64,000 nt of DNA, taken from assembly GCF_964199755.1 (NCBI RefSeq), contig NC_133903.1, positions 54,752,739 through 54,816,738 of the forward strand, given 5' to 3'. Positions within the stretch are counted from its first letter, which is position 1; each line of letters starts with the position of its first letter. The DNA is from Larus michahellis (lineage: Eukaryota; Chordata; Aves; Charadriiformes; Laridae). Both the position numbers and the translations under genes were made by a program. Below are positions 16,701 to 22,700 of this stretch, piece after piece. The notes beneath the pieces are model-generated. The model was not told the DNA's origin, searched no databases, and saw nothing but the letters and a program-made list of their open reading frames with translations.

Positions 16701-19700
16701 AGTAGCTGTATCAGTAGGCCAGCAAACAATGTGGCCAGTGAGCTCTTGTTCTCTAAGCAATGGCAGATGCCATATTATCCTGTTACTATTTTCTTTCATT
16801 TTAAATCCGTCTTTTGCTTTACATAACAGTAGAGTTCCACAAAATGCTTTGTGATTGCAACAACAGAATTTATTGTTCATCAGTAGCTTCTCTGTACTTC
16901 ACAAACCTCTCAGTCTGGTCTCTAGTAATTGACTGAATTGAAAAAAAATAAAAATCGCTAGAACTTAATTACCCTTGAAATGGTCTTTATTAATTTTGAA
17001 ATCAACTCACTTGACAAACCACTGATGGATCTAGGAGAACTAAAAACCCTTTTTTAACAATAGCCATTAGAAGAATTCATTAAAATAATTCAGAATGGTC
17101 AATGTCAGCTGTTGGTAATACACCTTTATTTTACGTGTCAGTGTATTTGTTTTGCTAATGCCTTGGGTATATTTGTTTAATTCTGGTTTAAGCCTGCACG
17201 ATGATTCATCACCAAATAACTGATATCTTTAAACACTCTCTTCCAAAGCCCATGACTAAAAAGAGGCAAAGTGTACTTCCCTCTTGGAATAGTTGCATAT
17301 TTTCTGAGCACACCTTCACAGGTGGCTCTTTTTTTAATAAGATTTCAGTTTTTATACTTGTTTTGTACATCAGCAAGCAAATGCTGTTAGTTGAGTGCTC
17401 CAGGCCGTGCTGCTCAGTGCCATCGAGCCAGAGGGACCCGGTCCTGGACTTGTGATAAATGTGGATGTTTAAATATTCTAAGGAGATATTGAATCTCAGC
17501 ATCTACAGTTTATAGAAATAATGGAAGATTTTTCTCAGGCCCTTAAGACAACACTCCAGAAGAATTCACCTGGTGGTTTAAGCAGGAGCAGGAGTTGACA
17601 TAATTCTAGGCAGGTTAACCTGCTGCTTCTGTTTCCTTGTCGACCCTCTTACATATATTTGCTGTAGGCAGATGATCAAAGCCAAATGACTAGTTTTAGT
17701 CTATTTATCCACATCACTAGTAATTCACACAGATACAGTGGAGATTGTTACAATCTAGTGCTTCTTAATTATTTGTGTCTTCAGACTATCTGTTCCATCA
17801 AACAACTTGACTGGATCTAGTTGTAGTTGATTTCTTTTGAGAATTAAGAATGCCTTCTCTTGTTTCGGCATGTGAGGAACTAGAGTGTGCTCCCTTATTG
17901 ACTGAGGCTGTGCCAGGAGCCAAAACAGCTGAACACATGGAAGCAGCAGCTTTTGGACATCAGAAATGATAGTGTTAGAAACATTAACAAGATCAAATTC
18001 TGTGGACCTCCTTCTTTTTGTCCTTTGAAGTGGAACTACTCAGTTTATTCTAATGAAGGACTCTCTGATATTTTAATGTTTATTTGCCTCTACTTTGTCT
18101 TTCTGAAAACAATTGAAAAAAACTCGCTTTGGTGTAATTGCTAGCTGTCTTTAAAACAATGAGACATACTGTGAGGCAACGTAAGACAAAATAAAAGCAT
18201 GTTCAGCTGAAGCTGTAGTCACACGCCTTTTGAACTTCAGTTGAATTGAATGACTAAAGTGAAGTTTTCAGTGAGGATACAGATGCAAACCCTACATTCA
18301 AAGGTAGGCAACAAGTCTTACTCCAACGCTGTGTAGTTATTGTAATCTGAGGGTTTTTTTACACCAAATACGACAAAGAAGTGGAGCATCGAGAAATTAA
18401 AACTGTAAGCAGAGTCAAAGATTCACAATCCAGATAAAAATACACAACGTGGATAGCGTTAAGACGAGGTATGCGGGAGGATTCTAACATAAAGTTAATC
18501 TTTATTTTTCAGTGTTTGTTGCTGATTTGCTGGTTTATATTCCTGCAGTTATTTTATATTGTTTTTCCTTGAAAGAAACATCTACTAAAAAGAAGGCAAG
18601 TATCTGGTGTGTGTGTAAATTAAAACCCAAAGAAAACATACTGTTAAAACAGGATAGAAATGTAACAGTATCAGAGTTAATTAAGGTATAGAACACTGTG
18701 ATGTCTTCAATTGACGTAAAATGGATGACAATTAGTATATCTCGTATTAAAGGCTTTTCAGCTAAAAAGATTTAAAAAAAAGCTATTATCTTACAGCAAT
18801 TATTTTAATGCTTTCAATAACAATAACAAGATGCTTTGAAGTTTAGTAGCCATGAACTCCTGAATTATTTCTTTCTGAATTTATTACTTGGGTAGTAAAC
18901 CCAAGATTTGTGCTGTGACAGGGGGAATCTAGGAACTGCTTTGTCTTGCACACTCCTTCTGGTAGAACGAATACACTTTGGAATAATAAGTCTTCTGATT
19001 TTTGGACTGATTCCAAAGGTTAAGGTGGGTGCAGGTGATCTTTGAGCTGGTTGGCAAAGGGCAGGCTGGTCTCCATTCAGTACTTTTTTATTTATGGAAA
19101 ATCTGTATCCTTTTTTATTCCTCAAAATACGACTGACAGATTACTTGTAGAGAAGATGATTTCTACATATAGGATGCACCGTTTTTGTACTGGAGAAGTA
19201 GTATAAGTTCCTTGTCTGGAGTCTAACTTAGAAATAATTATTTTCCCCTTTCCTTTTCTGATCCTTCTTTCCAGGTTTCCAGCGCTCTCTGCATCCTGCT
19301 TTATCCAGGCCTCATTCTTATTGACCACGGACACTTCCAGTATCCTTGTTCTGCAGTGAAATCAGTTTCCATTTAAAATACCACTGTTCTTTAGTACTTG
19401 TCTTTAGCTGGGCAGAAGGGTACTTTTGTGTACAAAGTCATCTGAGGGGCTTCTGCCTACCCCAAAGCAGAGAGTATTAAAGAAAACTGTAAGTCTTAAA
19501 TATATTGGAGATAAATAGTTGATATTGGGATAGATAATCCGAACACAAATAGCTTATATTTCTGTCAGTCACTTTATTGCAGAAAACATCAATGACAGTG
19601 AAAAGAACGACGGTTTGTGCTCCTGTGATTTGTGTTTGGAGAAAGAATCACCATAGTTCTTCTTGAGATGGCAGAGGAGTGTGTCAAGTGCAGTTGTGTA

Positions 19701-22700
19701 AAACGTTCAGTTCTATAAAGTGTGCCAGTCTGTCTTGCCTTTACGATTACTTGAGAGTGGATTCACATCACTTGATGCTTCACCACTTAAAAGGTAGGCA
19801 TCTAATAGGAGTTGGGCCGTCAGAGCTAACTAGTCAGTATTGGTGGCAGACACCTTCACAGGTGGCTCTTTTTTTAATAAGATTTCAGTTTTTATACTTG
19901 TTTTGTACATCAACAAGCAAATGCTGTTGGTTGAGTGCTCCAGGCCGTGCTGCTCAGTGCCGTCGAGCCAGAGGGACACAGTCCTGGACGTGTGATAAAT
20001 GTGGATATTTAAATATTCTAAGGAGATATTGAATCTCAGCATCTACTAAATCAAGTTTACTAATTTGTGGTTCTCTTCCAAGGAGTGCATGGCGAACTTG
20101 AAAGATGATATATCTTAGAAAGTAGATTTGGAAGGAAAAAAAATCATCATGCTATTGGATATTTGAGTTACAGTTCAGGAATTCTGAAATTCTGTTTTTG
20201 GTGTGACTCTCTAAAGATGTGGATCACCTGGAGACGTTGCTTACAAGAATGGGGACGGGAATGAATGCAATTCAACTTAGGTGAGAGAAGTGGTGGCCAG
20301 AAAAAGGCAGAGGGTTAGTTTTCTAATATGCAAAAGGTGTACAAAGAGGAAGGCAATAATCTTTTCTGTTTGTCTGGTGTTGGACAGGGCAAGAAGTAAT
20401 GGCCCTAAGTTACTGTAGGGAATATTTGGGTTTTTTTTAATACATGGAAAAATCTTTTGAACTTTAGTTACAGTGAAATGCTGGAATAGATTGTCTGTGG
20501 ATGTTGTGGAATCTGCAGCCTCAAGATCTTTAAGAAAAGGTTCAGCAAACCTCATTGTCAGGACTGACACAGGTGTAGCAGACGCTGCAGCGGACAGGTG
20601 TTCTGCGTGGTCTCCTGTGGTCTCTTCCAGCCCTGTGACTCTTAGATGAGTCACTATCTGTGACCGGCTCCTAAGAAGTCAAGAGATTTACACCTTAACT
20701 GCTGCTGCACATCTCTGCAAGATCACAGCCTTTTGGTATAACTACCCGCTGATGTGATCTCAAATATACGTGGTGGTTTTGAGTGGGAAATTGGAGTGGG
20801 CTGAAAACAATGTAGGCAATCTCGGTGTGTTGTCACAGTTATTTATATTGACAAGGAGAAAACAAAATATTGCGAAACTTCTGACAATACAAGTATCTTA
20901 TTTGGTTTCTCTCGTTGTGTAAAAATAGCGGTAAAAGACAAAGCTAATCTTTTGTTGCAACTTGATAGTAAGTGTAGCTTAGTCTCTTCAAACTCTACTG
21001 AGCTTAGGAACCTGTTCTCAAAGTCCTAAGGAAGAAACGTTGCTTTTAGTAACTGTTATTCGTTGTTTGTACAGCATTAGCAGCCGAGGGAACTGGTCGT
21101 GGATGAGGGTGCGTTGCGAGTGTAATATAATCACAAAAGCCTCAGGAATCCTTGAACTAAATAATATATAAATTAAATACTGATGTATTTGAATATTCTG
21201 CACATACCTTTTGGGAGCTTGGAGGAGAGACTCTTGAAAGCTTTGTCCTTAATCATGTAAATTCCAATAAAAAAATATTTACCCTGATGTGTCTTACTTA
21301 AGTACAGTCATCAAAAACTTGGTTGACTGAGTATATATTATGCGTGTGTGTGTTAATTATACGATTTGTCCTCATTTTTGCCTGTGCGAGCTTTGAATCA
21401 AGCTCTTGGAAATACAAAAATTGCACTTTAAATAGAAGTAAAATTATTTCTGTCTCTGAACTTCGTAGTCACAACTGGCAATGTGTTTTTAAAACTAACT
21501 TGGAAAAACTTATTTTGCACGGTATTTTATGCTTGTCCCTCAGGGTGTTCGTTACTGACTTCCAGTAGGAAGATGTATATCTTGTCCTTGACATAAGAAA
21601 CCATATACAACTCAGTGAGCCTGGGCTTTGCCTTGTGGGGCGTTCTTTGTTTGTCTTATGACTGGGACCTTTTGGGGTCAGTGGCATTTTGCTTGGCCTT
21701 AAATTATAAGCAAATGGAACTCTACCATTCTCTGCCCTTTTTTTGCTATTTACTTGGAAAGTGCTTCAAGAAGGGACTGAAAGGAAAGGGGTAAGTGACT
21801 TTAAACCATTTTATCTTTCTCAAGAATATGTGCAGGCAGCCTAGCATTGAGAATGTCGTTCTCCTTATTTGTATGCGGGAATTGCCGAATTAATTTCTAG
21901 TGGAAGATACTTACCTTGTTGTAATGTATTTCTCTCCAGCAAAATAAATATTTCTTGTTGAGATCTACATAAAGTATTTCCACTGAACAAATAGCAAAAT
22001 CTGTTTAGGTGTCCTTTCTTAGCACTCTTCATTCCGTAAGCTAATTTAAATATGGGCTGCAGCAGGCAACGTGATTAAATTGACAGCAGCGGCTCTGTGG
22101 TTCTCGCGGAGTTGGTATCACTAATCTGGGGATGATGAACTTTTTCTGTGGTACTGATACCTCTTCTTGTTTAGATTTGCCTTCCATTCTTTATCTCTTT
22201 TTTTAAAAAAACGTTTACGCTATAAATTAAGAACTGACTTTTGTTACCAGTAGCTGGATGTATCTTTTCTGATGTGAGCTTTTCTTTTGATTGCAGATTA
22301 GTGTTGTTAACTAAAATAGCAGGGACAGTGGTGGTTTCCTTTGCTGTCTGCTGGCTCCCGTTCTGTACCGACATGGCACAAATCATGCAAGTACTCAGAA
22401 GACTCTTTCCCATTGACCGAGGCTTGTTTGAGGCATGCATGTTTTCTTCTCCCCCACCCCGCTGTAAATGTTCTGTATTCTTAGATCCCTTGAGAAACCT
22501 TCATCGTGACCTTTAGGGATTTCATGTGGGAGACACACCACAGAACTAGTAATTTGAGCTGGCTTCTTCAGCAGTCATTTCTTGCCAGTTATTTAATCCA
22601 GTATTTAACCCCAGCTCAGCTGGCATCTTCCAGGATATTATATGAGTAGACAACACTTATCCCATCATCAAACCCATACTTCAATCCATACATTTTTCCA

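What the first reader, a model, noticed from the sequence alone, without database searches (positions are those of the whole stretch)
19340..21604. ALG6 contains a U12-type intron that appears to end in AT rather than AG
Seen: the intron starts GTATCCTT, a perfect minor-spliceosome donor, and has TCCTTGAC at 21585-21592, a near-perfect minor branch site. The adjacent exon must resume at TAC AAC TCA (YNS). No AG between the branch site and this point gives the right frame: AAG at 21597 shifts it. Ending at CAT|A (13 bases after the branch A) restores Gln165 and the gap-free 507-residue family length. Ending at AAAC|C (10 bases) is in frame but changes Q to HI. Known: minor introns tolerate unusual 3' termini, including AT. 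A non-AG minor intron in an essential glycosylation gene is rare and testable.
Basis: partly seen in the sequence, partly recalled or inferred. Interest (0 to 1): 0.8.

Follow-up and report, generated by a model that had tools for sequence, protein, structure and literature searches.

The report
Known GT-AT minor intron in ALG6
A gene needed for attaching sugars to proteins carries an intron that almost certainly ends in AT instead of the usual AG; the same oddity is already annotated in the human gene, so this is a further example of something known.

Summary
ALG6 here has 14 coding exons (7699-28099) joining into an intact 507-residue protein. Twelve of 13 introns end in AG (10 GT-AG, 2 GC-AG); intron 6 (19340-21604) does not. 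It alone has a perfect U12 donor (GTATCCTT) and perfect U12 branch site (TCCTTGAC, branch A 21591). The AG at 21596-21597 is 6 nt after the branch A and shifts the frame; all 51 in-frame AGs between 19398 and 21596 lead into a stop. The AT at 21604, 13 nt after the branch A, restores FQYN without a gap, as in solved yeast ALG6 ([12 protein letters not shown]). GT-AC at 21601 fits the frame but replaces Gln and adds a residue.

In that human data the aligned junction tracks did not themselves show the junction; the authors blame the aligner. No RNA from this species was available, its identity as a bird was not tested, and orthology to the human intron is inferred.

The parts
19275..19339 (+). 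ALG6 coding exon 6 (65 nt, ends in phase 2 at ...TTC CA)
   Evidence: Gene model
19340..21604 (+). ALG6 intron 6, 2265 nt, U12-type, proposed GT-AT
19340..19347 (+). U12-type 5' splice site GTATCCTT (8 of 8 to RTATCCTT)
   Evidence: the other 12 ALG6 introns score 3-5 of 8
21585..21592 (+). U12-type branch site TCCTTGAC (8 of 8 to TCCTTRAC), branch A 21591
   Evidence: the other 12 ALG6 introns score 4-7 of 8
21596..21597 (+). Upstream AG, 6 nt after the branch A; out of frame, inferred to be skipped
21600..21601 (+). Rival GT-AC end, 10 nt after the branch A; in frame but gives HI instead of Q
21603..21604 (+). Proposed 3' splice site dinucleotide AT, 13 nt after the branch A
21605..21790 (+). 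ALG6 coding exon 7 (186 nt), starts A TAC AAC TCA (completes Gln165, then YNS)
   Evidence: aligned to yeast ALG6 6snh
7699..28099 (+). ALG6 coding region, 14 coding exons, 507 aa
   Evidence: Pfam PF03155 E 4.4e-151

Best explanation
Intron 6 of ALG6 is a minor-spliceosome (U12-type) intron of the rare GT-AT subtype. The U11/U12 di-snRNP recognises the donor GTATCCTT and the branch site TCCTTGAC, so the 3' end is set largely by its distance from the branch A and by a last base that U12 splicing accepts with a first G. The AG 6 nt from the branch A is too close and is skipped; the AT 13 nt away is used. This joins TTCCA to ATACAAC and keeps the conserved motif FQYN. Shown here: the motifs, the reading frame, the conservation of the protein, and the presence of the minor snRNAs. 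Reported by others: an annotated GT-AT U12 intron in human ALG6. Inferred: that this animal splices in this way and that the human intron is the orthologous one.
For: Both perfect U12 motifs in 1 of 13 introns, this one. Low pyrimidine content before the 3' end (0.5, though intron 12 is equally low), as many U12 introns lack a tract. Branch-to-end distance 13 nt, within the 11-13 nt called optimal in PMC6717393. Intact 507-aa protein with no gap and 376 of 507 identities to human ALG6 as recalled from memory. FQYN contiguous in yeast ALG6 and in the second PF03155 locus of this genome, taken as ALG8 (a weak local match, E 0.041). 0 of 51 in-frame AGs between 19398 and 21596 give an open product. 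Human ALG6 GT-AT U12 intron annotated by GENCODE. GT-AT stated to be a working U12 pairing and listed among G-type minor introns. In chicken 3.4% of U12-type introns have ends other than GT-AG, GC-AG or AT-AC (table in PMC7367187). U11, U6atac, U4atac and U12 families each have a match over the cut-off in this genome. The junction region has one match in the assembly, itself.
Against: No transcript data for this species. A base error or rare allele at 21604 would turn this into an ordinary GT-AG intron. In the human figure legend the aligned junction tracks lacked support for the splice at the exon's 5' end; the authors put this down to minimap2, so that passage shows annotation and an aligner artefact, not cleanly mapped junction reads. 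The human passages give no exon number or coordinate. GT-AT calls in unstranded RNA-seq are often AT-AC introns of the other strand, so GT-AT reports in general need care. No other bird or reptile was compared.
Confidence: 0.9

Rival explanations
1. The intron is U12-type but ends GT-AC at 21601, replacing Q165 by HI.
For: In frame, 10 nt after the branch A; AC is the usual end of AT-AC minor introns.
Against: Replaces Gln and adds a residue in a stretch identical in yeast ALG6. A 5' G is reported to splice to 3' G or T. The annotated human ALG6 intron is GT-AT. In FlyBase, GT-AC 0 against GT-AT 14, weak evidence since those fly introns are not said to be U12-type.
Confidence: 0.035
2. The 3' end is an ordinary AG: an assembly error or allele at 21604 hides CAG|A.
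For: One substitution would give GT-AG; only one assembly was available.
Against: A GT-AT intron is annotated in human ALG6, so no error is needed. The rest of the coding region has no frameshift or stop.
Confidence: 0.035
3. The AG at 21596-21597 is used, either with a further exon between 19339 and 21597 that restores the frame, or as a frameshifted minor isoform.
For: It is the only AG between the branch site and the exon.
Against: 6 nt from the branch A. A cassette exon would insert residues between Q165 and Y166, which are contiguous in yeast ALG6 and in ALG8. Possible cassette exons were not enumerated.
Confidence: 0.02
4. The in-frame AG at 21618-21619 is used, dropping QYNSVS for H.
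For: AG, in frame.
Against: 28 nt from the branch A, and removes a stretch conserved to yeast.
Confidence: 0.01

Closest known systems
Human ALG6 GT-AT U12 intron (GENCODE; LRGASP, PMC11543605 and preprint PMC10402094)
   Same: Same gene, same spliceosome class, same terminal dinucleotides. minimap2 forces the human reads into GT-AG with a six-base deletion, which implies (my inference) an AG six bases before the true end; here an AG lies 7 bases before it.
   Different: Different species. The human exon number was not in the passages seen, so orthology of the intron is inferred.
G-type minor introns with non-AG ends (PMC8280824, PMC4176328)
   Same: GT donor of U12 type with a 3' end that U12 splicing is reported to accept.
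   Different: Nothing found here departs from that class.
Ordinary GT-AG U12-type introns
   Same: Donor, branch site and branch-to-end spacing.
   Different: Last base T instead of G.

Membership tests
U12-type (minor) intron | 5' splice site RTATCCTT | tested here: met
   8 of 8 at 19340-19347; the other 12 ALG6 introns 3-5 of 8
U12-type (minor) intron | Branch site TCCTTRAY close to the 3' end | tested here: met
   TCCTTGAC, branch A 13 nt before the last base; optimum 11-13 nt per PMC6717393
U12-type (minor) intron | Host has the minor-spliceosome snRNAs | tested here: met
   U11, U6atac, U4atac, U12: one match each over the cut-off in G000; only the best candidates were scored, so the counts are lower bounds
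U12-type (minor) intron | Excision depends on the minor spliceosome | not testable with these tools
   Needs RNA after minor-spliceosome depletion
GT-AT subtype | Spliced RNA joins 19339 to 21605 | not testable with these tools
   No RNA reads; frame and protein conservation point to it
Human ALG6 GT-AT U12 intron (orthologue) | Same exon boundary as the human intron | tested here: inconclusive
   Same gene and termini; only 1 of 13 introns here lacks AG; the passages seen give no human exon number or coordinate
ALG6 (Alg6_Alg8 glucosyltransferase, PF03155) | Full-length family match | tested here: met
   Pfam E 4.4e-151, profile 2-482 of 482; yeast ALG6 6snh E 2.4e-92

The most novel reading that the evidence does not exclude
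The AT end has been kept in ALG6 since before the lines to human and to this animal split (more than 300 million years if it is a bird; recalled), although one substitution would give AG, because the non-AG end is itself useful, for example by slowing splicing and limiting ALG6 output.
Probability: 0.2. Interest if true: 0.5.

Novelty: already known. Interest (0 to 1): 0.2.

Why it matters
Gene predictors and read aligners that insist on AG will misplace this junction, as the LRGASP paper reports for human ALG6. A likely match between human and this animal makes the intron a useful test case for non-AG minor splicing and for annotation pipelines, and a candidate for asking whether a non-AG end can be conserved over long times (a GT-GG end in BANP is already reported as conserved among almost all vertebrates). 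It does not change what is known of the minor spliceosome.

Tried and rejected
Canonical junctions for intron 6: the first scan (donors 19313-19376, acceptors 21566-21635) gave 11 candidates, of which the best 5 were printed; the best-scoring one still carried an insertion. With the donor fixed at 19339, 156 AGs lie between 19398 and 21596, 51 are in frame and 0 are open to the exon. Possible cassette exons inside the intron were not enumerated.

A retrocopy or second copy that could show the spliced product: none seen. The junction region has one match in G000, itself (that search skips very common words), and PF03155 matched 12 stretches, 6 in this ALG6 on C12 and 6 in one locus on C1 taken as ALG8.

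Does ALG8 share the intron? It seems not: HFQYN is read through in one open stretch (L009; weak local match, E 0.041; its splice sites were not modelled).

First attempts at exons 12-14 used wrong anchors and gave nothing; corrected.

Literature: ALG6 with 'U12-type intron', ALG6 with 'minor intron', and any two of ALG6, c.494+, c.495: 0 papers each. Any two of ALG6, minor spliceosome, U12, minor introns: 370 papers, 5 listed, none of the 5 holding ALG6. Any two of ALG6, c.680+2, c.257+5: 1 paper, not opened. ALG6 with U12 as whole words: 2 records of one work, the LRGASP paper. Two papers on U12 splice-site mutagenesis were looked up by recalled DOI and are not held. Orthologues in other vertebrates: no collection here is described as holding them; no scan of the viral, metagenome, bacterial, phage, plasmid or E. 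coli collections was made.

Change made on checking: confidence in the best explanation lowered from 0.92 to 0.90, and the odds of the four rivals raised slightly, because the human figure legend says that the aligned junction tracks themselves lacked support for the junction.

Full report
What was claimed. I checked the letters, rebuilt the gene, tested other ends, and looked for the same feature in print.

The gene. A guide protein (human ALG6, recalled from memory and so not a tool result) located the coding exons in the window. Joining them at the best splice sites gives 14 coding exons from 7699 to 28099 and a protein of 507 residues with no internal stop, no gap against the recalled human protein, and 376 of 507 identities. 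Pfam places it in Alg6_Alg8 (PF03155, E 4.4e-151, profile positions 2-482 of 482), and solved yeast ALG6 (6snh) matches with E 2.4e-92. The gene looks intact. The junction region has one match in the assembly, itself.

The introns. Of 13 introns, 10 are GT-AG, 2 are GC-AG (introns 5 and 8), and intron 6 alone has no AG at its end. Intron 6 is also the only one with both U12 signals: donor GTATCCTT 8 of 8 (the other 12 score 3-5 of 8) and TCCTTGAC 8 of 8 with the branch A 13 nt before the proposed end (the other 12 score 4-7 of 8). The consensus used, RUAUCCUU and UCCUURAY, is as printed in PMC10853781 (passages seen); the optimum of 11-13 nt from branch to end is as stated in PMC6717393 (passages seen). 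As bare words both motifs occur at chance rates in 64 kb. Their position is what matters: 2 of 3415 plus-strand GTs begin GTATCCTT, and 52 of 64000 plus-strand positions have a branch site 8-20 nt upstream.

The 3' end. With the exon ending at 19339 the candidates are few. AG at 21597 is 6 nt from the branch A and shifts the frame (185 residues). AC at 21601 is in frame and turns FQYN into FHIYN (508 residues). AT at 21604 gives FQYN and 507 residues. AG at 21619 is in frame and replaces QYNSVS by H (502 residues). TA at 21595 and GA at 21598 are in frame but lie 4 and 7 nt from the branch A and insert three and two residues. Of 51 in-frame AGs between 19398 and 21596, none is open to the exon. 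Yeast ALG6 reads [12 protein letters not shown] without a gap across this place, and the second PF03155 locus of this genome, taken as ALG8, reads HFQYN within one open stretch (E 0.041), so an insertion or loss here is unlikely. Possible cassette exons inside the intron were not enumerated.

What is known. In the LRGASP paper (PMC11543605, passages seen; preprint PMC10402094, passages and one figure legend seen) human ALG6 is described as holding 'a rare but annotated GT-AT U12 intron'. minimap2 forced it into GT-AG with a six-base deletion, and none of the pipelines found the isoforms that contain it. The legend also says that the junction tracks lacked support for the splice at the exon's 5' end; the authors ascribe this to the aligner. 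The same trap would exist here, where an AG lies 7 bases before the AT. Parada and colleagues (PMC4176328, passages seen) state that in U12 splicing a 5' G can join a 3' G or T, with G preferred, and that a GT-GG end in BANP is conserved among almost all vertebrates. The CENATAC paper (PMC8280824, passages seen) lists GT-AT among G-type minor introns. The IAOD paper (PMC7367187, passages seen) gives 3.4% of chicken U12-type introns as having other ends than GT-AG, GC-AG or AT-AC. [quoted passage not shown] A survey of U12 intron evolution (PMC2831892, passages seen) reports other odd ends (CT-AC, GG-AG, GA-AG) and, in the passages seen, no GT-AT. FlyBase counts (PMC4528330, passages seen) give GT-AT 14 and GT-AC 0; all 14 have a similar alternative splice and are not said to be U12-type. 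Two papers warn that GT-AT in RNA-seq is often an AT-AC intron of the other strand (PMC4528330; PMC5485934, passages seen); here the gene's strand is fixed by its coding frame, so that does not apply.

Machinery. U11, U6atac, U4atac and U12 snRNA families each have one scored match over the curated cut-off in this genome; only the best candidates were scored, so these are lower bounds, and the 14 control genomes gave none.

Conclusion. The GT-AT end is inferred from sequence and from the human report, not from RNA of this species, and the human exon number was not in the passages seen. Because the human intron was already annotated and described, this is a further case of a known feature, probably a conserved one, and not a discovery.

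Noticed in passing
18596-19274 and 22433-24649: Two further ALG6 introns (5 and 8) have GC-AG ends in the best gene model; intron 8 has an unusual donor, GAG|GCATGCATGT.
   Followed up: partly
19105-19112: A second perfect GTATCCTT lies in intron 5, about 160 bases before exon 6; it may be chance or a decoy minor-spliceosome donor.
   Followed up: no
59406-59416: ATATCCTTGAC: a U12 AT-type donor word overlapping a U12 branch-site word; probably chance.
   Followed up: no
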